From positions 1 to 28,113 of the forward strand of contig CAMLNA010000047.1 of NCBI GenBank assembly GCA_946481025.1: a stretch of 28,113 nt of DNA, written 5' to 3'. Positions 12 to 26,893 of the stretch are shown in pieces (the stretch's first letter is position 1; the number at the start of each line of letters is the position of its first letter). This stretch comes from an uncultured Rivibacter sp. (GTDB taxonomy: Bacteria > Pseudomonadota > Gammaproteobacteria > Burkholderiales > Burkholderiaceae). The translations under genes and the position numbers were made by a program. The notes under the pieces are model-generated. The model did no database searches and was not told the DNA's origin. It saw only the letters and a list, made by a program, of their open reading frames with translations.

Positions 12-36
12 CCGCCGGTGATCCCTAAGCCGGCGG
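12..36. other. Inverted repeat upstream of intI
   Basis: The arms CCGCCGG (12-18) and CCGGCGG (30-36) are perfect complements with an 11-base loop. No T run follows, so an intrinsic terminator is only one reading. It could be the end of a gene lying left of the window or part of the integron recombination region. No GTTRRRY core site is visible between it and intI, so I do not call it attI or attC. Confidence 0.35.
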
Positions 37-82
37 CCCCTCTCAGCCGTGAAAGGCGATGAATGCTGGCCTTGCGCAATCA

Positions 83-102
83 TACTGGATGCAAATACAG
101 TG
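83..102 (+). promoter_or_regulatory. LexA-like SOS box in front of intI-dinB
   Basis: The core CTGGATGCAAATACAG (85-100) has the exact CTGN-N8-ACAG spacing of the proteobacterial LexA operator. With two flanking bases on each side it matches 15 of 20 positions of the extended consensus; the main defect is G instead of T in the left half-site. It ends 7 bases before the preferred intI start at 108, where a repressor would block transcription. A possible -35 TTGCGC (72-77) lies upstream, but no good -10 stands out. LexA control is known for other integron integrases and for dinB; that this site works is inference. Confidence 0.65.
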
Positions 103-107
103 TCGGA

Positions 108-1157
108 ATGACGCCTAGGTCGCCCTCTTCGCCGCCACGTCCGCCTCGACTGCTGGATGAAGTCCGCCGGCGCATTCGCGCATTGCACTACAGCATACGA
201 ACCGAGGAATCCTATATTCATTGGGTGAGGACCTTTGTTCGATTTCACGGTCTTCGTCATCCTCGCACCATGGGTGCCGCGGAAGTCGCATCGTTTCTCG
301 ACTACCTGGCCAACGAGCGCGGCGTCGCTGTCGCGACGCATCAGCAGGCGCTTGCCGCGCTGCTGTTTCTCTACAGGCAGGTGCTCGACCTCGAGTTGCC
401 CGGCCTGGGCGAGATTGCCCGGCCGCAGCGCAAGCGAAGGCTGCCAGTCGTACTCGATCACGGCGAGGTGATGCGGTTGTTCGAGCAGCTCCCTGTCGAG
501 CACTTGTTGACGGCTCAGCTGCTATACGGCACCGGGATGCGCATCCTCGAAGCGCTGCGCTTGCGCGTAAAGGACATCGACTTTGCGCATCGCACGATCG
601 TCGTTCGGGAAGGCAAGGGCGGCAAGGACCGCGCGCTGATGCTTCCCGACACCTTGGTTGCGCCACTGCGAGCGCAGCTTGTGCGCGCGCATGCGCTCTG
701 GGAGGCAGACCGCAGCGCTCAGCGCGCCGGCGTGTGGATGCCTGACGCTCTGGCACGCAAGTACCCGCGCGCCTCGCAATCGTGGGCCTGGCACTGGGTG
801 TTTCCCCACACACGGCTGAGTGTCGACCCGCGCACAGGCGCCGAGCGCCGTCACCACGCAACAGAACAAGCGCTTCAGAGGGCGTTCAAGCGCTCCCTGC
901 AGTCCTGCGGGATCGTCAAACCAGCCACGCCTCACACGCTGCGCCACAGCTTCGCCACGCACCTTCTGCAGTCCGGCTACGACATCCGCACGGTGCAAGA
1001 CCTCCTGGGCCATGCCGACGTGAGCACCACCATGATCTACACGCATGTGCTCAAGGTGGGCGGTTCGGGCGTGCGCAGCCCGCTAGACGCCCTGATGCTC
1101 GAGCCGCACGCCGCAGCCCTGAGCCCGCCCCACGCAAGATGCAGCGCCGCCGCCTGA
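108..1157 (+). CDS. intI: Integron integrase (IntI-type tyrosine recombinase)
   Basis: Site-specific tyrosine recombinase that would insert and excise gene cassettes at attI/attC sites. With the ATG at 108 the protein has 349 residues. The catalytic set is complete: R145, K170/K173, H276, R279, H302 and nucleophile Y311, each within about one residue of the class 1 integrase positions (R146, H277, R280, H303, Y312). The IntI-specific insert that distinguishes integron integrases from XerC/D is at about 214-233 ([20 protein letters not shown]). The N-terminal SAM-like domain covers about 15-105. An upstream in-frame ATG at 63 has a better ribosome binding site (GAAAGG, 51-56) but adds 15 residues unlike other IntI proteins and would place the LexA-like box inside the gene; the start is therefore not settled. 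The 3' end overlaps dinB by 19 bases. No cassette array is in view. Confidence 0.93.
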
Positions 1158-2410
1158 TCGCCCACCTCGACATGGACGCGTTCTACGCGTCCGTGGAGCT
1201 GCTGCGCTATCCGGAGCTGCAGAACCAGCCCGTCGTCATCGGTGGCGGGCGCCGGCACCAGCCTGAAATGCTGGCGGACGGCACGCGGCGCTTCGCGCGC
1301 CTGCGCGACTACACCGGCCGCGGCGTCGTCACCACCGCCACCTATGCCGCGCGCGACTTCGGCGTGCACTCCGGCATGGGGCTCATGAAGGCCGCCCTGC
1401 GCGCGCCCGACGCGGTGCTGCTGCCCACCGACTTCGACGCCTACCGCCACCACTCGCGCCTGTTCAAGGCAGCCGTCGCCGAAGTCGCCCCCGTCATCGA
1501 AGACCGCGGCATCGACGAGATCTACATCGACCTCACCGACGTGCCGGGCGCACAAGACACCGTGGGCCACGACCCGCTCGGAGGCGCGCGTGCCGTGGCC
1601 CAGGAAATCAAGAACAGCGTGCGTCGCGCCACCGGGCTCACCTGTTCCATCGGCATCACACCCAACAAGCTGTTGTCCAAGATCGCTTCCGAGCTCGACA
1701 AGCCCGACGGCCTCACCGTCCTGGCCGCCGACGAGGTGCCCACGCGCATCTGGCCGTTGCCGGTGCGCCGCATCAACGGCATCGGCCCCAAGGCGGGAGC
1801 GCGGCTGCAGCAGCTGGGCATTGCCACCGTCGGCGAGCTGGCGCGGTGCGAGCCCGCCTGGCTGGTCGAGCACTTCGGCAGCAGCTACGGCATCTGGCTG
1901 CACCGCGCCGCCCGTGGCATCGACGAGCGGCCGGTGGTCACGCACAGCGAGCCGGTGTCGATGAGCCACGAAACCACTTTCGAACGCGACCTGCATGCGG
2001 TGCGCGACCGCGCCGTGCTGTCGACCATCTTCACGCAGCTATGCCAGCACCTGGCCGAAGACCTGCAGCGCAAGGGCTACGTGGGCCGCACCGTCGGCAT
2101 CAAGCTGCGGTACGACGACTTCAAGACCGTGACCCGCGACCACACCCTGCAGGCGTGGACCAGCGACTTCGCCACCATTCGCCGTGCGGCAGGCGAGTGC
2201 CTCAAGCGTGTGCCGCTCGAAAAGCGCCTGCGCCTGCTCGGCGTGCGCATGGGCTCGCTGTTGAAAACCGCTGACGCCGCCGCTGCGCTCGAAGCGGCGG
2301 AGCGGGCCAGGCGCAAAAAGAACAAACGTACCTCGCCGGCCACTCCCGACGACAACACGCTGCGCGCCGAAGAACCGCAGGCACCCTACACGCCCGGCCT
2401 GTTCATCTGA
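1139..2410 (+). CDS. dinB: DNA polymerase IV (Y-family, error-prone)
   Basis: Translesion DNA polymerase of 423 residues. The catalytic motif [12 protein letters not shown] supplies D11 and the [12 protein letters not shown] motif supplies D126/E127. A helix-hairpin-helix segment ([19 protein letters not shown]) and the little-finger domain follow. It is longer than the E. coli enzyme because of an insertion at about residues 38-60 and a basic, proline-rich tail from about 380 that ends in TPGLFI, possibly a sliding-clamp contact. Its ATG lies inside the last codons of intI in another frame (19-base overlap), so the two genes are probably co-transcribed and translationally coupled under the LexA-like site at 83-102. 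DinB is a classic SOS gene; its pairing with an integron integrase is the notable point. It ends 16 bases from the convergent gene at 2427. Confidence 0.95.
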
Positions 2411-2426: not shown

Positions 2427-2783
2427 CTATGGGCGCCGGCCGAGGCCGCGCCACCAGCCGCCCGACATCACGAAGCGCGGAAAGGTCACGAACTGCTCGA
2501 CCACGAAGCGCGAGAAGAAGTCGCCCGCCCCCAGAAAGGGCTCGGGCGCCTCGGGCTCGGTCTTGTGGCCCACCGCCTGCGCCACAAAGGCCCCCAGCAA
2601 GCCGCCCAGGCCCAGCAGCCACATCGACGCGCCGCCCGCACCAAGCGCTGCAGCCGCCAGCGCGGCCACGCCGCCCCAGAACAGCGGCACCGTCGCGATG
2701 TGCAGCCACAGGTTGAGGCGGCTGCGGTGCTTGTTGCCGTAGTCGGCGTATTGCCAGCGGAGCAGGTCTTTGCGGATCGTCAT
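2427..2783 (-). CDS. Small membrane protein, Mpo1/DUF962-like
   Basis: A 118-residue protein with two hydrophobic segments at about 25-47 and 52-70. The pattern YADYGNKHRSRLNLWLH followed by AQAVGHKTEPEAPEPF recalls the conserved histidines of the DUF962/Mpo1 family, whose yeast member is an Fe-dependent dioxygenase of 2-hydroxy fatty acids. Similarity is judged by eye and activity is not shown. The C-terminal part (FFSRFVVEQFVTFPRFVMSGGWW) is strongly aromatic. It is divergent from the TetR gene at 2869, with an 85-base intergenic region carrying overlapping promoters and inverted repeats, so the TetR protein probably controls it. It could instead be an unrelated small membrane family. Confidence 0.7.
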   Translation of the reverse strand: MTIRKDLLRWQYADYGNKHRSRLNLWLHIATVPLFWGGVAALAAAALGAGGASMWLLGLGGLLGAFVAQAVGHKTEPEAPEPFLGAGDFFSRFVVEQFVTFPRFVMSGGWWRGLGRRP

Positions 2784-2812: not shown

Positions 2813-2859
2813 CTTGACAGCAGCCAATCTAGGCGCTTATCTTTCCACTGTCAAGATAA
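2813..2859. promoter_or_regulatory. Divergent overlapping promoters with operator-like inverted repeats
   Basis: Plus-strand promoter: TTGACA (2814-2819), 18-base spacer, TATCTT (2838-2843), facing the TetR gene. Minus-strand promoter: TTGACA (2854-2849), 17-base spacer, TAGATT (2831-2826), facing the Mpo1-like gene. The two occupy nearly the same DNA. Two perfect inverted repeats lie on top: CTTGACAG/CTGTCAAG (2813-2820, 2848-2855) and TTATCTT/AAGATAA (2837-2843, 2853-2859, 9-base spacer). The second covers the plus -10 and the minus -35 and is a good candidate TetR operator. Confidence 0.6.
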
Positions 2860-2868
2860 CTCGCGCGC

Positions 2869-3495
2869 ATGTCTCGCACCGTCGACAAGGCCGCCTCCAG
2901 GCCCTACCACCACGGCGACCTTGCCGAAGCCCTGCTGCAGGCCACCGCAGACCTGCTGGCCGAGGCAGGGCCCGAACGCTTCAGCCTGCGCGAGTGCGCA
3001 CGACGCGCTGGCGTGTCGCATGCCGCCCCGGCCCACCACTTCGGCGACACGCGCGGGCTGCTCACGGCCTTTGCGGCCAGAGGTTTCGAAGCCCTGGCCC
3101 AGCGCCTGCGAAAGGCGGCCGGCGTCGCCGCCGACCCGGTTGCACGCCTGCAGGCACAAGGCGAAGCCTATGTGGCCTTCGCGCTCGAGCACCCTGCCCG
3201 CTATCAGCTCATGTTCCGCAGCAGCCAGACCGACATGGAGATGCCGCTGCTGAGCGACGCAGCCCAGGCGGCCTGGGCCGAGCTGGCCAATGCCGTTGCA
3301 GCCGCACGCGGTACTGAACCGCCGCGCGACAGCAGCGACCCGCATGCCGCACTCGCCTGGGCCTCGGTGCACGGCCTTGCGCTCCTGCTGATCGACGGCC
3401 GCATGGCGCCGGCCCGCGCGCGGCCTCAGGCATGGCGCCGCATGACCCGAGACACGCTGGCGGCCTTGGCCCCTGCCTGGCGACCACCGGTTTGA
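2869..3495 (+). CDS. TetR/AcrR-family transcriptional regulator
   Basis: A 208-residue regulator. The N-terminal helix-turn-helix lies at about 12-58, with the recognition-helix region FSLRECARRAGVSHAAPAHHFGDTRGLL typical of TetR proteins. The C-terminal ligand domain (about 80-205) has the pattern of the TetR_C_33/WHG group (HPARYQLMFR near residue 108). No strong ribosome binding site precedes the ATG. The gene is divergent from the Mpo1-like membrane protein and shares with it a 47-base block of overlapping promoters and inverted repeats, which suggests autorepression plus control of that neighbour. The ligand is unknown; a fatty-acid-like compound would suit the neighbour but is only a guess. 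Confidence 0.9.
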   Translation: MSRTVDKAASRPYHHGDLAEALLQATADLLAEAGPERFSLRECARRAGVSHAAPAHHFGDTRGLLTAFAARGFEALAQRLRKAAGVAADPVARLQAQGEAYVAFALEHPARYQLMFRSSQTDMEMPLLSDAAQAAWAELANAVAAARGTEPPRDSSDPHAALAWASVHGLALLLIDGRMAPARARPQAWRRMTRDTLAALAPAWRPPV

Positions 3496-12501: not shown

Positions 12502-14568
12502 TCAGCCGCTGAAGCGCACCATCAGCGCGTGCTGGGCGCTCACCCCTTGAGTGCCTACGCGCAGGTAGCTGCCGTCGGACTGCTGCAGCCAGGCGTCGCG
12601 CCCATCGTGCAGGTAGGGTACGAGGCACTCGTCGATGACGCGTTGCCGCAGGGCAGCATCGCGTACCGGCCATGCAATCTCGATGCGCCGGAACATGTTG
12701 CGGCTCATCCAGTCGGCGCTCGAGAGGTACAGCGCCTCATCGTCCTCGCCGGTTCCCCACCGGAAGTACATGATGCGCGAATGCTCGAGGAAGCGGCCGA
12801 TCACCGACCGCACGCGGACCCGTTCCGTGAGGCCCTTCACCGAAGGCGGCAGCATGCAGGCGCCGCGCACGATGAGGTCCACATCGGCGCCCGCCTGGGC
12901 CGCCGCCACCAGCGCCTTGATGAGCACCTCGTCGGTGAGCGCATTGAGCTTGGCGACGATGCGCGCTGGCTTGCCGGCCCGGGCTGCCTGCTCCACCCGT
13001 TCGATGAAGGCGCACATCTGGCGGTGCAGGCTGAACGGCGCCAACAGCAGCTGCCGCGGTGCACGGTGCTTGGTGAGGCTTGCCAGCTGCTGGAACACCG
13101 TGTCGGCGTCGGCCGTGAGCTCGGCGTCGGCGCTCAGGTAGCCCACGTCGGTGTAGAACAGCGCGGTCTTGGGGTTGTAGTTGCCGGTGGACAAATGCAC
13201 GTACCGTCGCAGGCGCCCTTCTTCGCGTCGCGTGATGAGCAGCAGCTTGGCATGCGTCTTCAGCCCGACGATGCCGTACACCACCTGGGCGCCCACCGCT
13301 TCCAGCCGCTCGGCCCAGTTGATGTTGGCCTCTTCGTCGAAGCGCGCCTTGAGTTCCACCACGGCCATCACCTCCTTGCCGCGGCGGGCGGCCTCGAGCA
13401 GGAGGTCCATCAGCACGGACTCGCTGCCGGTTCGGTAGATGGTCTGCTTGATGGCCAGCACCTCCGGGTCGGCCACCGCCTCGCGCAGCAGCTGGACCAC
13501 GGGGTCGAAGCTCTCGAACGGATGGTGCAGCAGCACGTCGCCGCGGCGCAGCCGCTCGAACATCGACATGCCCTCGCGCGGGAGGCTCTGCGGCCATGCC
13601 GGCTCGTACGGCGTGAAACGCAGCTGCGGCGCCTCGGCCTGGTCGATCAACTGGTTCAGCCGCACCAGGTTGACCGGCCCGTTGACGCGGTACAAGGCGG
13701 CCTGCGGCAGACCGAACTGCTGCAGCAGGAACTCGCTCAGCTCGCTCGGGCAGGTGTTCACCACTTCCAGGCGGATGGCCTGGCCGAAGTGCCGGGTCGA
13801 CAGAGAAGAGCGCAGCGCCTGGCGCAGGTTGGTCACGTCCTCCTCGTCGACGTCGAGGTCGGAGTCACGCGTGACGCGGAACTGCGAGAACGCCTCGACG
13901 CTGCGCCCCGGGAACAGCTCGTCGAGGTGGGCGCGGATCACGCTGGACAGCAGCACGAAGGCCTGCGCGCCCGGTGCCACCAGCTTCTCGGGCAGGCGGA
14001 TGACCCGCGGCAACACCCGCGGCACCTTGACGATGGCGATGGAGTTGTCGCGGCCGAAGGCGTCTCGACCGCCCAGCTTGGCGATGAAGTTCAGCGACTT
14101 GTTGGCCACGAGCGGGAACGGATGAGCAGGATCCAGCCCCAGCGGCACCAGCAATGGCCGTACCTGTTTCTGGAAGAACTGGTCGACCCAGCGGCGCTGC
14201 GCCTCGTCGCGCTCGGCATGGTTCAGGATGCAGATGCCTTCGCGCTTGAGCGCCGGCATCACTTCGTCGTTGAAGGTGGCGTACTGGTCGTCGATGAGCT
14301 GGTGCGCCTCGGCGGCCACTTCGGCCAGCTCGCGGGAGGTGATGGCCGACGTGGGCAGCCGGGAGGCTTCCAGGTAGTCGGCAAAACGCACCTCGAAGAA
14401 CTCGTCGAGGTTCGACGACACGATGCAGATGTAGCGCAGCCGCTCCAGCAGTGGCACGTCTTCGCGCCTGGCCTGCGCCAGCACCCGGCGGTTGAATTCC
14501 AGGATCGCTCGCTCGCGATTGAGCAAGGTCAGGCCGGCCACGGCCGGGGCTTTCACTTCAGCGTCCAT
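12502..14568 (-). CDS. ppk: Polyphosphate kinase 1
   Basis: A 688-residue enzyme that makes polyphosphate reversibly from ATP. The N-terminal domain (about 17-120) begins with LLNRERAILEFNRRVLAQA. The phosphorylated histidine is H439 (GLKTHAKLLLITRREE), equivalent to E. coli H435; the second catalytic histidine is H596 (GRFLEHSRIMYF), equivalent to H592. Conserved segments DVLLHHPFESF and STGNYNPKTALFYTDVGYL are present. The ATG at 14568 follows the glycosyltransferase stop by only 9 bases and has no evident ribosome binding site, so translational coupling is likely. sixA follows after 16 bases. Membership in a unit with lipid-remodelling genes implies phosphate-dependent control; a Pho-box-like site is found before the first gene of the unit. 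Confidence 0.97.
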   Translation of the reverse strand: MDAEVKAPAVAGLTLLNRERAILEFNRRVLAQARREDVPLLERLRYICIVSSNLDEFFEVRFADYLEASRLPTSAITSRELAEVAAEAHQLIDDQYATFNDEVMPALKREGICILNHAERDEAQRRWVDQFFQKQVRPLLVPLGLDPAHPFPLVANKSLNFIAKLGGRDAFGRDNSIAIVKVPRVLPRVIRLPEKLVAPGAQAFVLLSSVIRAHLDELFPGRSVEAFSQFRVTRDSDLDVDEEDVTNLRQALRSSLSTRHFGQAIRLEVVNTCPSELSEFLLQQFGLPQAALYRVNGPVNLVRLNQLIDQAEAPQLRFTPYEPAWPQSLPREGMSMFERLRRGDVLLHHPFESFDPVVQLLREAVADPEVLAIKQTIYRTGSESVLMDLLLEAARRGKEVMAVVELKARFDEEANINWAERLEAVGAQVVYGIVGLKTHAKLLLITRREEGRLRRYVHLSTGNYNPKTALFYTDVGYLSADAELTADADTVFQQLASLTKHRAPRQLLLAPFSLHRQMCAFIERVEQAARAGKPARIVAKLNALTDEVLIKALVAAAQAGADVDLIVRGACMLPPSVKGLTERVRVRSVIGRFLEHSRIMYFRWGTGEDDEALYLSSADWMSRNMFRRIEIAWPVRDAALRQRVIDECLVPYLHDGRDAWLQQSDGSYLRVGTQGVSAQHALMVRFSG

Positions 14569-16689: not shown

Positions 16690-19485
16690 TCAATGCGCCT
16701 CGTCCCAGTTCGGGCCGAATCCGATCTCGGCCACCAGCGGCACCTTCAGCTGCGCCACTGAGGCCATCACCCTGGGCACCTCGGTCCTGATCCAGTCGAT
16801 CTCGGCCTGCGGCACCTCGAACACCAGTTCGTCGTGCACCTGCATCACGATCAGGGCCTGCTTTCCGGCGGCGTCGAGTGCCTCCTGCACCGCGATCATG
16901 GCGAGCTTGATGAGGTCCGCGGCCGTGCCCTGCATGGGCGCGTTGATGGCCTGCCGCTCGGCGCCGCTGCGACGCGGGCCGTTGGGGCTGTTGATCTCGG
17001 GCAGATAGATGCGGCGGCCGAACAGCGTTTCGACGTAGCCCTTTTCCTTGGCCGCCAGGCGTGTTTCGTCCATGTAGCGCTTCACCCCGGCGAAGCGCGC
17101 GAAGTAGCGCTCGATGTAGTCGCGCGCCGCCTTGGTCTCGATGCCCAGGCTCGAGGCCAGTCCGAACGCGCCCATGCCGTAGATCAGGCCGAAGTTGATG
17201 GTCTTGGCGTAGCGCCGCTGCTCCGCGCTGACCTCGTCGGGCGGCGTGCCGAACACTTCGCTCGCGGTGGCGCGGTGCACGTCCATGCCCTCGCCGAAGG
17301 CACGCAGCAGGCCCGGATCCTCGGAGATGTGCGCCATGATGCGCAGCTCGATCTGCGAGTAGTCGGCCGACGCGATCACGCAGCCCGGCGGCGCAATGAA
17401 GGCCTCGCGAACGCGCCGCCCTTCCGGCGTGCGGATCGGGATGTTCTGCAGGTTGGGGTCGTTGCTCGAGAGGCGCCCCGTCACCGCCACCGCCTGGCCG
17501 TAGCTGGTGTGCACACGCCCCGTACCGGGGTTCACCATCAGCGGCAGCTTGTCCGTGTAGGTGCCCTTGAGCTTCGACAGGCTGCGGTGTTCGAGGATCT
17601 TGGCCGGCAGCGGGAAGTCCGCCGCGAGCTTCTCGAGCACCTCTTCATCGGTGGACGGCGTACCGCTCGCGGTCTTCTTGACCACCGGCAGCTGCAGCTT
17701 GCCGAACAGGATCTCGCCGATCTGCTTCGGGCTGCCCAGGTTGAAGGGCTGGCCCGCCAGCTCGTGCGCCTCGCGCTCGAGCGCCATCATCCGCTGCGCC
17801 AGCTCCTGGCTCTGCCGCTGCAGCAGCGCGGCATCGATCAGCACGCCGTTGCGTTCGATGCGCAGCAAGCGCTCGGAGATCGGCATCTCGATCTGCTCGT
17901 ACACGTGGCGCAGGCCCGGCTCGGCCTCCAGCTGGGGCCAGAGGGCGCGGTGCACGTCCAGCGTCATGTCGCTGTCTTCGCCCGAATATTGGGTGGCGCA
18001 CTCCACCGTCACCTGTGCGAACGGGATCTGGTTGACGCCCTTGCCGCACACCTCTTCATAGCTCAGGCCGCTGCGGCCCACGTGCCGTTGCGCCAGGCTC
18101 TCGAGGCCGTGCGGCTTGTGGGCCTCCAGCACGTAGCTCTGCAGCATGGTGTCGTGCCTGTAGCCTCGGACCGTGATGCCGTGGTTGGCGAACACATGCG
18201 CGTCGTACTTGATGTGCTGACCCACCTTGTGGCGCGCGGCGTCTTCGAGCCAGGGCTTGAGCTGGGCCAGCACGTCGTCGAGCGGCAGCTGCGCCGGCGC
18301 ATCGGGGTAGCTGTGCGCGAGCGGGATGTAGCACCCGGTACCGGTCTGCGTGCTGAACGAAAGCCCCACGATGCGGGCACGCATCGGGTCGAGCGAATCG
18401 GTCTCGGTGTCCAGCGCCACCAGCTCCGCCGCCTGCAGCTTGGCGAGCCAGGCATCGAACGCTTCCTGCGTGAGCACCGTGTCGTAGTGCTTGTTCGCGA
18501 TCGCCGGCGGCACGTGGGTGGGCGCATCGTCGAAGAGCGACTCCTGGGCCGGACGGTTCGGCGCCGGCGCTGCGGCCGCCGAGGCCTGCGGGGAAGCGCC
18601 TCCCAGCGCATCCTCCATCTCCTTCTTCCAGGTGCGAAAGCCGTACTGCGCGTAGAAGTCCAGCAGCGCCGGACGGTCGGCCTCCCGCCAACCCAGGTCG
18701 TCGAGCTTGGGAAAACCCGGGATGTGCTCGGCCATGTCGCAGTCGGACTTGATGGTCACCAGCTTGCGCGCAGTGGGCAGCCAGTCGAGCGCGCGGCGCA
18801 GGTTCTCGCCGACTGCACCCTTCACGCCGGCGGCCGCGGCCATCACGCCCTCGAGCGAGCCGTGTTCGGCGAGCAGCTTCACTGCCGTCTTGGGACCGAC
18901 CTTGTCGACCCCCGGCACGTTGTCGACCGCATCGCCCACCAGCGTGAGGTAGTCGACGATGCGCTCGGGCGGGACGCCGAACTTCTCGTTCACGCCGTTG
19001 ATGTCGAGCGACTCGTTGCTCATCGTGTTGATGAGCACCACCCGCTCGTTCACCAGCTGCGCCATGTCCTTGTCGCCGGTGGAGATGATGACGCGCTGCC
19101 CGCCGGCCGAGGCCAGGCACGCCAGCGTGCCGATCACGTCGTCCGCCTCGATGCCCGGCACCTCGAGCACCGGCCAACCGAGCAGGCGCACCACCTTGTG
19201 GATCGGCTCGATCTGCTGCGCCAGCGCCTCGGGCATGGGCGCCCGATTCGCCTTGTACTCGGGATACCACTCGTCGCGGAAGGTCTTGCCCTTGGCGTCG
19301 AACACGCAGGCCGCATGCTGGGCCGGAAACTGCTCGCGCAACTTGCGCAGCATGTTGATGATTCCGTAGATGGCGCCGGTGGGCTCGTTGGCCGCGTTGC
19401 GCAGGTCGGGCATCGCGTGGAAGGCCCGGTACAGGTAGCTGGAACCATCCACCAGCAGTAGGGTCGATTCAGCAGGGGTATTCAT
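16690..19485 (-). CDS. polA: DNA polymerase I
   Basis: A 931-residue repair and Okazaki-processing polymerase. The 5'-3' exonuclease domain occupies about 1-300 (LLLVDGSSYLYRAFHAM, then the VDYLTLVGDAVDNVPGVDKVGPKTA helix-hairpin-helix). The 3'-5' exonuclease domain (about 330-520) has VALDTETDSLDPMRARIVG with the DxE pair at about 359-361, so proofreading is probably active. In the polymerase domain, motif A (ASADYSQIELRIMAHIS) is at about 706, motif B (RRYAKTINFGLIYGMGAFG) at about 757-775 and motif C (MQVHDELVFEVP) at about 882. Length and domains are normal. The start is 7 bases from a CACAAT -10-like element, so the mRNA may be leaderless. Divergent from the DUF2782 gene. Confidence 0.97.
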   Translation of the reverse strand: MNTPAESTLLLVDGSSYLYRAFHAMPDLRNAANEPTGAIYGIINMLRKLREQFPAQHAACVFDAKGKTFRDEWYPEYKANRAPMPEALAQQIEPIHKVVRLLGWPVLEVPGIEADDVIGTLACLASAGGQRVIISTGDKDMAQLVNERVVLINTMSNESLDINGVNEKFGVPPERIVDYLTLVGDAVDNVPGVDKVGPKTAVKLLAEHGSLEGVMAAAAGVKGAVGENLRRALDWLPTARKLVTIKSDCDMAEHIPGFPKLDDLGWREADRPALLDFYAQYGFRTWKKEMEDALGGASPQASAAAAPAPNRPAQESLFDDAPTHVPPAIANKHYDTVLTQEAFDAWLAKLQAAELVALDTETDSLDPMRARIVGLSFSTQTGTGCYIPLAHSYPDAPAQLPLDDVLAQLKPWLEDAARHKVGQHIKYDAHVFANHGITVRGYRHDTMLQSYVLEAHKPHGLESLAQRHVGRSGLSYEEVCGKGVNQIPFAQVTVECATQYSGEDSDMTLDVHRALWPQLEAEPGLRHVYEQIEMPISERLLRIERNGVLIDAALLQRQSQELAQRMMALEREAHELAGQPFNLGSPKQIGEILFGKLQLPVVKKTASGTPSTDEEVLEKLAADFPLPAKILEHRSLSKLKGTYTDKLPLMVNPGTGRVHTSYGQAVAVTGRLSSNDPNLQNIPIRTPEGRRVREAFIAPPGCVIASADYSQIELRIMAHISEDPGLLRAFGEGMDVHRATASEVFGTPPDEVSAEQRRYAKTINFGLIYGMGAFGLASSLGIETKAARDYIERYFARFAGVKRYMDETRLAAKEKGYVETLFGRRIYLPEINSPNGPRRSGAERQAINAPMQGTAADLIKLAMIAVQEALDAAGKQALIVMQVHDELVFEVPQAEIDWIRTEVPRVMASVAQLKVPLVAEIGFGPNWDEAH

Positions 19486-24526: not shown

Positions 24527-26893
24527 TCAGTCGACGGGTGTCAGCTTGGCCACGCTGAGCGCCAGCCACTTCATACCGTGGCGGCCGAAATTCACCTGCG
24601 CGCGGGCATCGTCGCCGCTACCTTCGAGCGTCACGATGACGCCTTCGCCGAACTTGGTGTGGAACACGCCCTGCCCGGCGCGGAAGCCGGTGCCCGCACC
24701 GCGCGACGCGGCCATGGCAGGCGGCAGCGGTGGCTCGCTCGCCACCCGCCCCGCGCCGACGATGGAGCCCAGGCCACTGCCCCGATTCCAGGCCTGCTGG
24801 TAATCGCGAGCGAAGCCCGAACCGAAGCCCTGCACGCGCGGCGTGATCCACTTGAGCGCCGCTTCGGGCAGCTCGTCGAAGAAGCGGCTCTTGATGTTGT
24901 AGCGGGTCTGGCCGTGCAGCAGGCGTGTCTGGCTGAAGCTCATGTACAGGCGCTTGCGCGCGCGCGTGATGGCCACGTACATGAGGCGGCGCTCCTCTTC
25001 GAGGCCGTCGACGTCGGACAGCGAGTTCTCATGCGGGAACAGGCCTTCTTCCAGCCCGGTGATGAACACGTTGTCGAACTCCAGCCCCTTGGCCGAGTGG
25101 ATCGTCATCAGCTGGATCGCGTCCTGCCCGGCCTGGGCCTGGTTGTCGCCGGCCTCGAGCGCCGCATGGGTGAGAAAGGCTGCCAGCGGCGACATGATCT
25201 CGCCCGTTTCGGCGTCGGGCGTGGTGGCCGCAGCGGCCGGCGCGGGCGGCTCGCCGAGCGCGATGGCACCGGGGCCCTGTTCGTCCACCGGCAGCGCGAC
25301 CGCGTCCTTGCCGAAACCCTCCTGTGTCACGAAGGCTTCGGCCGCGGTCACCAGTTCGGCCAGGTTCTCCAGCCGCTCCTGGCCTTCCTTTTCGGTGCGG
25401 TAGAAGTCGGCCAGGCCCGAGGCCTGCACCGTGTGCTCGATGATGTCGCGCAGCGTGAGGCCATGGGTCGCCTGGCGCATCGCATCGACCAGCGCATTGA
25501 AGGCAGCAAGGTTGACGCCGCCCTTGCCGGTGACGGCGCCCACGCTCTGGTGCAGGCTGCGGCCGCTCGCACGTGCGGCGTCCTGCAGTTGCTCCAGCGT
25601 GCGCGCGCCGATGCCGCGCGCGGGAAAGTTGACCACCCGCAGGAAGCTGGTGTCGTCGTTCGGGTTCTCGATCAGGCGCAGGTAGGCGAGCGCATGCTTG
25701 ATCTCGGCCCGCTCGAAGAAGCGCAGGCCGCCGTACACGCGGTACGGCATGCCGGCGTTGAACAGCGCCGACTCGATGACCCGCGACTGCGCGTTGCTGC
25801 GGTAGAGCACCGCGATCTCGCTGCGTGCGGAGCCGTCTCGGATGAGCTGGCGCGCCTCTTCGAGGAACCACTGCGCCTCCGCGAAGTCGCTGGTCGATTC
25901 ATACACCCGCACCGGCTCGCCCGGCCCTGCCTCGGTGCGCAGGTTCTTGCCCAGGCGCCGGCTGTTGCGGCTGATGAGTTCGTTGGCGGCATCGAGGATG
26001 TTGCCGAAGCTGCGGTAGTTGCGCTCCAGCTTGATGACCTGCTCGACGCGGAACTCGCGCTCGAACAGCGACATGTTGCCCACCTGCGCTCCGCGGAAGG
26101 CATAGATGCTCTGGTCGTCGTCGCCCACCGCCATGACGCTGCTCTCGGCGCCGGCGAACATCTTGAGCCAGGCGTACTGCAGGCGGTTGGTGTCCTGGAA
26201 CTCGTCGACCAGGATGTGCCGGAAGCGCCGCTGGTAGTGCTCGCGCACCGCCTGGTTGTCGCGCATGAGCTCGTACACGCGCAGCATCAGCTCCGCGAAG
26301 TCGACCACGCCTTCGCGCCGGCACTGGTCTTCATAGGCCTGGTAGATCTGCACCAGCGTGCGGGTCTGGCCGTCGGTGACCTCGATGTCGCCCGGGCGCA
26401 GGCCGTCTTCCTTGCTGCCGGCGATGAACCACGTGACCTGCTTGGGCACGAAACGTTCTTCATCGAGGTTCATCGCCTTGATGACGCGCTTCACCGCGGA
26501 GAGCTGGTCCTGGCTGTCGAGGATCTGGAAGCCCTGCGGCAGGTTGGCCAGCTTCCAGTGCGCGCGCAGGAAGCGGTTGCACAACCCGTGGAAGGTGCCG
26601 ATCCACATGCCGCGCACGTTCACCGGCAGCATCGCGCCCAGGCGCGTGAGCATTTCCTTTGCAGCCTTGTTGGTGAAGGTCACCGCCAGCACGCCGCCCG
26701 GCGACACCTGCCCTGTCTGGAGGAGCCACGCGATGCGCGTGGTCAGCACCCGAGTCTTGCCGGAGCCCGCGCCCGCCAGCACGAGCGAGTTGCCGCGCGG
26801 CAGCGTCACCGCGGCGAGTTGTTCAGGGTTGAGGTTGGCCAGGAGGCCCGCGGGCACGGCGTGGCCGTCTTCGACAGAATGCTCGGAATGCAT
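24527..26893 (-). CDS. uvrD: DNA helicase II (UvrD, superfamily 1A)
   Basis: A 788-residue ATP-dependent 3'-5' helicase for nucleotide-excision and mismatch repair. Walker A GAGSGKT is at 41-47; motif Ia is in AVTFTNKAAKEM; Walker B VDEFQDTN is near 230; motif III is in GDDDQSIYAFRGA; motif V is in LMTIHSAKGLEFDNVFI and motif VI in YVAITRARKRLYMSF near 640. The C-terminal GVFHTKFGEGVIVTLEGSG segment is the Tudor-like domain that contacts RNA polymerase in E. coli UvrD. An Ala/Pro-rich insert near 545-565 (EPPAPAAAATTPDAETGE) is unusual. The start ATG is the right half of an ATGCAT. No LexA site is seen upstream. Confidence 0.96.
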   Translation of the reverse strand: MHSEHSVEDGHAVPAGLLANLNPEQLAAVTLPRGNSLVLAGAGSGKTRVLTTRIAWLLQTGQVSPGGVLAVTFTNKAAKEMLTRLGAMLPVNVRGMWIGTFHGLCNRFLRAHWKLANLPQGFQILDSQDQLSAVKRVIKAMNLDEERFVPKQVTWFIAGSKEDGLRPGDIEVTDGQTRTLVQIYQAYEDQCRREGVVDFAELMLRVYELMRDNQAVREHYQRRFRHILVDEFQDTNRLQYAWLKMFAGAESSVMAVGDDDQSIYAFRGAQVGNMSLFEREFRVEQVIKLERNYRSFGNILDAANELISRNSRRLGKNLRTEAGPGEPVRVYESTSDFAEAQWFLEEARQLIRDGSARSEIAVLYRSNAQSRVIESALFNAGMPYRVYGGLRFFERAEIKHALAYLRLIENPNDDTSFLRVVNFPARGIGARTLEQLQDAARASGRSLHQSVGAVTGKGGVNLAAFNALVDAMRQATHGLTLRDIIEHTVQASGLADFYRTEKEGQERLENLAELVTAAEAFVTQEGFGKDAVALPVDEQGPGAIALGEPPAPAAAATTPDAETGEIMSPLAAFLTHAALEAGDNQAQAGQDAIQLMTIHSAKGLEFDNVFITGLEEGLFPHENSLSDVDGLEEERRLMYVAITRARKRLYMSFSQTRLLHGQTRYNIKSRFFDELPEAALKWITPRVQGFGSGFARDYQQAWNRGSGLGSIVGAGRVASEPPLPPAMAASRGAGTGFRAGQGVFHTKFGEGVIVTLEGSGDDARAQVNFGRHGMKWLALSVAKLTPVD

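What the first reader, a model, noticed from the sequence alone, without database searches (positions are those of the whole stretch)
83..2410. An integron integrase and error-prone polymerase IV in one LexA-boxed operon
intI and dinB overlap by 19 bases and a LexA-like box (core CTGGATGCAAATACAG, 15/20 over the extended site) lies just before intI. SOS induction would then raise cassette shuffling and translesion mutagenesis together from one promoter, tying two sources of variation in one transcript. LexA control of each gene alone is known; their tight fusion into a unit is the unusual part. I cannot check whether this pairing has been described elsewhere.
Basis: partly seen in the sequence, partly recalled or inferred. 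Interest (0 to 1): 0.8.

Follow-up and report, generated by a model that had tools for sequence, protein, structure and literature searches.

The report
Integron integrase fused to mutator polymerase
A gene-shuffling enzyme (integron integrase) and an error-prone DNA polymerase overlap behind one predicted DNA-damage switch, and a similar pairing seems to have arisen separately in another bacterial lineage, which would tie two sources of genetic variation to one stress signal if the two genes are expressed together.

Summary
intI (108-1157) and dinB (1139-2410) overlap by 19 bases, with one LexA-like box (83-102, 15/20) five bases before intI and no second one before the end of dinB. Both proteins pass curated family cut-offs. 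LexA control of intI is known, so the box alone is ordinary; the join to dinB is not. Among 201 loci scanned around or behind intI, a dinB directly behind intI appears in 4 genomes, all of one Caldimonas/Tepidimonas group whose integrase lies in another clade (AU p = 0.0003): the pairing arose at least twice. The closest relative held (G070, DinB 94-95% identical) has the orthologous dinB without intI, behind a LexA box whose flanks look homologous to window 57-112; homology resumes at the dinB start codon. IntI's last five residues and stop codon are written in dinB DNA. An attI-like element (22-28) suggests that the window starts inside the integron attachment region. I read it as an integron platform joined in front of dinB to form one SOS-controlled unit: a new variant of a known kind. 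LexA binding, co-transcription, and whether G070 lost intI or never had it are untested or unresolved.

The parts
22..28 (.). TCCCTAA, attI-like accessory element at -61 from the LexA box (identity as an attI element is inferred)
   Evidence: at least 6/7 of the motif within -66..-56 in 12 of 54 distinct boxed intI upstreams against 0.66 expected from shuffles; several of the 12 are near-identical class-1-like loci; position checked
57..112 (+). promoter region that aligns with the region before dinB in the relative G070
   Evidence: weaker without fixed register
83..102 (+). LexA-like box TACTGGATGCAAATACAGTG
   Evidence: 15/20, only such site in the window
108..1157 (+). intI, integron integrase, 349 aa from ATG 108
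   Evidence: NF011946 and TIGR02249 over cut-off; catalytic positions conserved in 5 of 5
1139..1157 (+). 19-base overlap of intI and dinB; IntI's last five residues and stop codon lie in dinB DNA
   Evidence: the same TGA is present in G070's dinB
1139..2410 (+). dinB, DNA polymerase IV, 423 aa
   Evidence: NF002677 over cut-off, Pfam IMS/IMS_C; G070 orthologue 94-95% identical

Best explanation
The window begins inside or next to the attI side of a chromosomal integron. The platform (attI region, LexA-boxed integrase promoter, intI) is joined directly to the start codon of the chromosomal dinB, so that intI has no stop codon of its own and ends on a TGA inside dinB. In normal growth LexA at 83-102 should silence both genes. 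On DNA damage or entry of single-stranded DNA, RecA-stimulated LexA cleavage should release one transcript that makes IntI (cassette capture and shuffling) and, by coupling at the overlap, Pol IV (translesion synthesis). Shown by sequence: two intact-looking genes, the overlap, the single box, the attI-like element, the junction, the orthologous dinB without intI in G070, and a second origin of the pairing elsewhere. Inferred: LexA binding, one transcript, translational coupling, SOS induction and the effect on variation.
For: Gene identity. One box for both genes that fits the pattern of G070's lexA and dinB sites. attI-like element at conserved spacing. G070: dinB orthologue, collinear downstream as far as fetched (window 7787), no intI in front, promoter flanks that look homologous. 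Independent pair: Caldimonas manganoxidans (L009) and G224 have one LexA box, then intI, then dinB about 40 bp later, with an attC upstream in L009 and an attC-like sequence read by eye in G224. The tree rejects one integrase clade for both pairs. LexA boxes before intI are common in the loci fetched: 83 of 90 distinct upstreams at 12/20 or better, many of them near-identical class-1-like loci, and 49 of 79 at 14/20 or better. PMC3108266 (abstract, section 5 and the first part of section 8 read) reports LexA sites in 624 of 1,103 integrase promoters.
Against: No binding or expression data. No attI core or cassette is visible, because the window ends too early, and the attC scan found none in the window. 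The same paper says that loss of LexA control is the norm in chromosomal integrons of soil and freshwater species. The pairing is rare: adjacent in 2 of 83 family genomes present in both printed lists, plus G001. In Tepidimonas ignava DinB similarity ends near residue 152 and is the only DinB match in that genome, so the pair is not always kept functional. The consensus scan finds no sigma-70-like site at the intI promoter. No clear ribosome-binding site precedes dinB (by eye).
Confidence: 0.7

Rival explanations
1. Chance neighbours: an integron happened to land in front of dinB. The overlap is a by-product of the join, dinB is expressed mainly from another, unseen promoter, and the pairing has no selected role.
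For: The pairing is rare: 4 genomes among 201 loci scanned, all of one group, and 2 of 83 in the family cross-check. dinB is cut in Tepidimonas. Many dinB genes of the family show no LexA box: 2 of 31 distinct upstreams have one of 14/20 or better.
Against: Two integrase clades carry the same order and direction with a single box in front; the join removes intI's own stop and any spacer in which a separate dinB promoter could lie.
Confidence: 0.3
2. Gain: dinB of this clade already had its own LexA promoter, still seen in G070, and the intI reading frame was inserted between that promoter and the dinB start codon, so the integrase uses dinB's switch.
For: Window 57-112 aligns with G070's boxed dinB promoter. 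Boxed dinB without intI exists elsewhere: 3 of 7 intI-free genomes in the genus of Caldimonas have a LexA-like box within 300 bp, one with the same 16-base core as G070.
Against: The window also has the attI-like element upstream of the box at the spacing seen in other integrons, so a pure insertion of the reading frame would need two exchanges. Boxed dinB is uncommon in the family.
Confidence: 0.35
3. Loss: the ancestor of the window's species and G070 already had attI, integrase promoter, intI and dinB in this order. G070 lost intI and the array and kept the integron promoter as the SOS switch of dinB.
For: Same promoter alignment; attI-like element in the window; LexA boxes are commoner before intI (49 of 79) than before dinB (2 of 31) at 14/20 or better.
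Against: G070 has no TCCCTAA within 200 bases upstream of its box and its leader shows no significant match to intI (273 of 1000 shuffles reach the score). No attC was found in the G070 stretch.
Confidence: 0.4

Closest known systems
LexA-controlled integron integrases (Cambray et al. 2011, PMC3108266)
   Same: E. coli-like LexA box just before intI; integrase of the same family
   Different: A word search of that paper's main text finds neither dinB nor polymerase; its sections that I read treat intI alone
LexA-controlled dinB / Pol IV (known in E. coli, recalled; boxed dinB seen here in G070 and some Caldimonas-genus genomes)
   Same: LexA box and Y-family polymerase
   Different: No integrase in front
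imuA-imuB-dnaE2 mutagenesis operons (recalled; a LexA-boxed imuA-like gene was read by eye in G070)
   Same: A LexA-boxed transcription unit with an error-prone polymerase
   Different: No site-specific recombinase
intI-dinB pair of Caldimonas manganoxidans, G224 and Tepidimonas (found here)
   Same: LexA box, intI, dinB in the same order and direction
   Different: About 40 bp gap instead of an overlap; integrase of another clade; dinB cut in Tepidimonas

Membership tests
Integron integrase (IntI) | Passes curated IntI models, including the integron-specific stretch before the catalytic C-terminus | tested here: met
   NF011946 484.7 and TIGR02249 464.5 bits, both over cut-off; aligned end to end with the IntI4 structure 2a3v
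Integron integrase (IntI) | Catalytic residues R, K, H, R, H, Y (roles recalled) | tested here: met
   R145, K170, H276, R279, H302, Y311 invariant in 5 of 5 aligned sequences
Complete integron | attI next to intI | tested here: inconclusive
   Accessory-like TCCCTAA at -61 present; the core site would lie left of base 1
Complete integron | attC-bearing cassettes | not testable with these tools
   None found in the window by a crude scan; the array side is outside it and no own genome is held
LexA-controlled intI | LexA box in the intI promoter | tested here: met
   83-102, 15/20
LexA-controlled intI | LexA binding and SOS induction | not testable with these tools
   Bench work needed
DNA polymerase IV (DinB) | IMS and IMS_C domains and a curated Pol IV model | tested here: met
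   PF00817 137.4, PF11799 85.3, NF002677 287.3 bits, over cut-off; other Pol IV models of the same library stay below their cut-offs
Operon (one transcript) | Same strand, overlap, no promoter or terminator between | tested here: inconclusive
   Strand and overlap met; one weak + strand terminator-like site at 347-361, within what shuffles give
Operon (one transcript) | RNA spanning the junction | not testable with these tools
   No RNA data

The most novel reading that the evidence does not exclude
Integron platforms have repeatedly been joined in front of the host's dinB, so that the integron promoter becomes the SOS switch of a mutator polymerase: a selected variation operon that couples cassette shuffling to translesion mutagenesis. 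Pol IV may even help to copy the single-stranded attC recombination intermediates. In G070 the integron would have gone while its SOS promoter stayed with dinB.
Probability: 0.25. Interest if true: 0.82.

Novelty: new variant of a known kind. Interest (0 to 1): 0.6.

Why it matters
Integrons and error-prone polymerases are two well-known SOS-linked sources of bacterial variation, normally encoded apart. One transcript for both, arisen at least twice with different integrases, would suggest that selection or a shared route of insertion can wire them together, and gives a simple genetic test of whether gene shuffling and point mutation are favoured together under stress. The dinB fragments in Tepidimonas and the intI-free promoter in G070 also suggest that integrons can carry off or leave behind pieces of host SOS control.

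Tried and rejected
Shared ancestry of the two pairs: rejected by the integrase tree (AU p = 0.0003 for the window with L009, L011 and L093; p = 0.0056 with P0002 and P0003 added).

Assembly chimera: unlikely, since a second public protein has the same tail.

Chance LexA site: rejected.

Homology of the window's upstream to that of the Rhizobacter integron L002: 4 of 2000 shuffles reach the score, but it was the best of 90 loci, so it is not used as proof.

Window-G070 promoter homology, results against: with the box masked 3 of 1000 shuffles reach the score, and in free placement the best unrelated loci reach the same score of 27. With the register fixed, G070 scores 28 and the next of 60 boxed upstreams 11; the best of 50000 shuffles reached 27. 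The L002-G070 comparison gave nothing (1381 of 2000 shuffles reach it), nor did G070's leader against intI (273 of 1000).

Searches of little use: plasmids (no record covers 80% of the query; class 1 intI at 66-67%, dinB-region matches on Caballeronia replicons at 70-71%), viral contigs, Rfam and tRNA. In one search a weak DinB-profile hit in L075 lies at the far end of the locus, about 9 kb from intI, and is not counted.

The attC scan is crude: by its rule two of five control loci (L069, L016) gave no hit, and it missed the attC-like sequence of G224 that I read by eye.

Literature: ten full-text searches listed no paper that I recognised as describing an intI-dinB pair; the library lacks most subscription journals. 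Seen: PMC3108266 abstract, word search, section 5 and part 1 of 2 of section 8; PMC8618304, PMC4790341 and PMC8946536 matched passages; all others search listings only.

Full report
OBSERVATION. The first 2.4 kb of the window hold intI (108-1157) and dinB (1139-2410) on the + strand, overlapping by 19 bases. IntI passes two integron-integrase models and DinB one Pol IV model over the curated cut-offs; Pfam domains agree. Six catalytic positions (roles recalled) are invariant in a five-sequence alignment. The best solved relatives are the integron integrase 2a3v and Pol IV chains. One LexA-like box lies at 83-102; it is the only CTG...CAG site of 13/20 or better in the 28 kb, and 2 of 300 shuffled windows held one of 15/20 or better.

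IS THE BOX A PLAUSIBLE SOS SITE? The closest genome held, G070 (DinB 94-95% identical), has a LexA over the curated cut-off. The pattern CTGNATNNNNATNCAG occurs there at 11 sites, against 0 for the reversed control. One, CTGGATAAAAATACAG, lies just upstream of lexA, another before dinB; by my own reading of translations an imuA-like gene and a UvrD-like helicase stand at others, and several sites have no clear SOS gene beside them. The window's core CTGGATGCAAATACAG fits the pattern. Boxes of 12/20 or better stand before 83 of 90 distinct intI upstreams, many near-identical class-1-like loci; at 14/20 or better, 49 of 79. PMC3108266 reports putative LexA sites in 624 of 1,103 integrase promoters, but also that loss of LexA control is the norm in chromosomal integrons of soil and freshwater species. 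The box alone is ordinary for an integrase.

THE JUNCTION. In G070 the orthologous dinB and the DNA behind it align with the window at 88-92% identity up to window 7787, where the fetched stretch ends, with some extra DNA in G070; no intI stands in front. The blastn alignment starts at the dinB start codon, 1139. IntI's codons TGC AGC GCC GCC GCC and the stop TGA lie in dinB DNA, and that TGA is also in G070's dinB, so intI ends on a stop it did not bring. P0001, from public metagenome data, has the same tail and differs at one residue of 295.

THE PROMOTER. Window 57-112 aligns with the region around G070's dinB box (score 43; 0 of 1000 shuffles, best 33). With the register fixed on the box, the flanks score 28, against 11 for the next of 60 boxed upstreams, and 0 of 50000 shuffles reach 28 (best 27). 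With the box masked and no fixed register the match is weaker: 3 of 1000 shuffles reach it, and unrelated loci score as high. I take the regions as homologous, with that reserve. The window also has TCCCTAA at -61 from the box. At least 6/7 of this motif stands within -66..-56 in 12 of 54 distinct boxed intI upstreams against 0.66 expected; several of the 12 are near-identical class-1-like loci with TCCATAA, and none of 8 boxed dinB upstreams has it. I read it as an accessory element of attI (inference). By the spacing in relatives the attI core should lie about 30 bases left of base 1, so the window may end where cassette arrays differ between cells (inference).

WHO ELSE HAS IT. Of 79 loci fetched by IntI similarity, 3 have dinB directly behind intI: Caldimonas manganoxidans, Tepidimonas ignava and a MAG labelled Hydrogenophaga whose genome falls in the genus of Tepidimonas. 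G224 is a fourth. Of 399 family genomes 191 have an IntI match and 366 a DinB match. Of 83 genomes present in both printed lists (150 places each, capped), 2 have the pair adjacent, G002 (which is C. manganoxidans) and G224; G001 (T. ignava) is a third, its DinB match being below the printed list. A DinB profile over 201 loci around or behind intI, duplicates included, found no further adjacent pair; these include 60 stretches behind intI and 28 new loci from an order-wide search in which 144 of 399 genomes had IntI, so only part of those was followed. In the genus of G002, 2 of 9 genomes have intI before dinB. In the genus of G001, 5 of 11 have a DinB match and three of these only a fragment ending near residue 152, one of them starting at a contig edge. 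The Caldimonas and Tepidimonas blocks are 93.7% identical over 1736 bases that end inside dinB, as if integron and dinB piece had moved together (inference).

TWO ORIGINS. In a careful tree of 32 integrases the window's IntI groups with two metagenome proteins (100/98), and the Caldimonas group lies in another clade. Forcing the paired integrases together is rejected (p = 0.0003; p = 0.0056 with the two metagenome proteins added). In L009, G224 and L011 too, the only LexA box in the stretch scanned lies before intI, none between intI and dinB. An attC with perfect core ends lies upstream in Caldimonas; an attC-like sequence is readable in G224 (by eye).

GAIN OR LOSS. Either the integron stood in front of dinB in the ancestor and G070 kept only its promoter, or intI entered behind dinB's own LexA promoter. 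For the first: the attI-like element, and boxed dinB being uncommon (2 of 31 distinct upstreams at 14/20 or better, G070 among the 31). For the second: a LexA-like box within 300 bp of dinB in 3 of 7 intI-free genomes in the genus of Caldimonas, one with the same 16-base core as G070, and no integron trace found in G070's leader or upstream. I leave it open.

MECHANISM. Best reading: LexA holds one promoter; SOS releases a message that makes the cassette integrase and, through the overlap, Pol IV. Parts and order are shown; binding, co-transcription, coupling and the effect on variation are inferred. A consensus scan finds no promoter-like + strand site within intI, but none at the intI promoter either.

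NOVELTY. Each half is known. Ten full-text searches listed no paper that I recognised as describing the pair; the library is open-access only. I class it as a new variant of a known kind.

CHANGE ON CHECKING. After holding the report against the calls I lowered confidence in the best explanation from 0.72 to 0.70, because the promoter scan and the passage on soil and freshwater integrons had been left out.

Noticed in passing
L011 about 1284-2294 (Tepidimonas ignava) and L010: DinB similarity behind intI stops near residue 152 and the frame reads on into unrelated sequence; it is the only DinB match in the T. ignava genome, and 6 of 11 genomes of the genus have no DinB match at E 1e-40.
   Followed up: partly
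L010 (MAG labelled Hydrogenophaga, G003): The genome falls in the genus of Tepidimonas ignava in the tool's grouping and its intI-dinB stretch is 99.5% identical to it over 2454 bases; the label looks wrong.
   Followed up: partly
G070 C153:37901-38881 and C137:60523-61071 (L145, L150): G070 has two further integron integrase matches away from dinB, both near contig ends, one cut by the contig end.
   Followed up: partly
window 12505-14568, 16693-19485, 24530-26893 (- strand): Polyphosphate kinase, DNA polymerase I and a UvrD helicase lie in the same 28 kb; conservation of this neighbourhood was not tested.
   Followed up: no
   Followed up: partly
intI upstreams about 61 bases before the LexA box: TCCCTAA or TCCATAA at fixed spacing from the LexA box in 12 of 54 distinct intI upstreams; it might help to recognise attI in chromosomal integrons.
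   Followed up: partly
window 2814-2854: Promoter-like sites on both strands between the divergent gene at 2427-2783 (-) and the TetR-family regulator at 2869-3495 (+).
   Followed up: no
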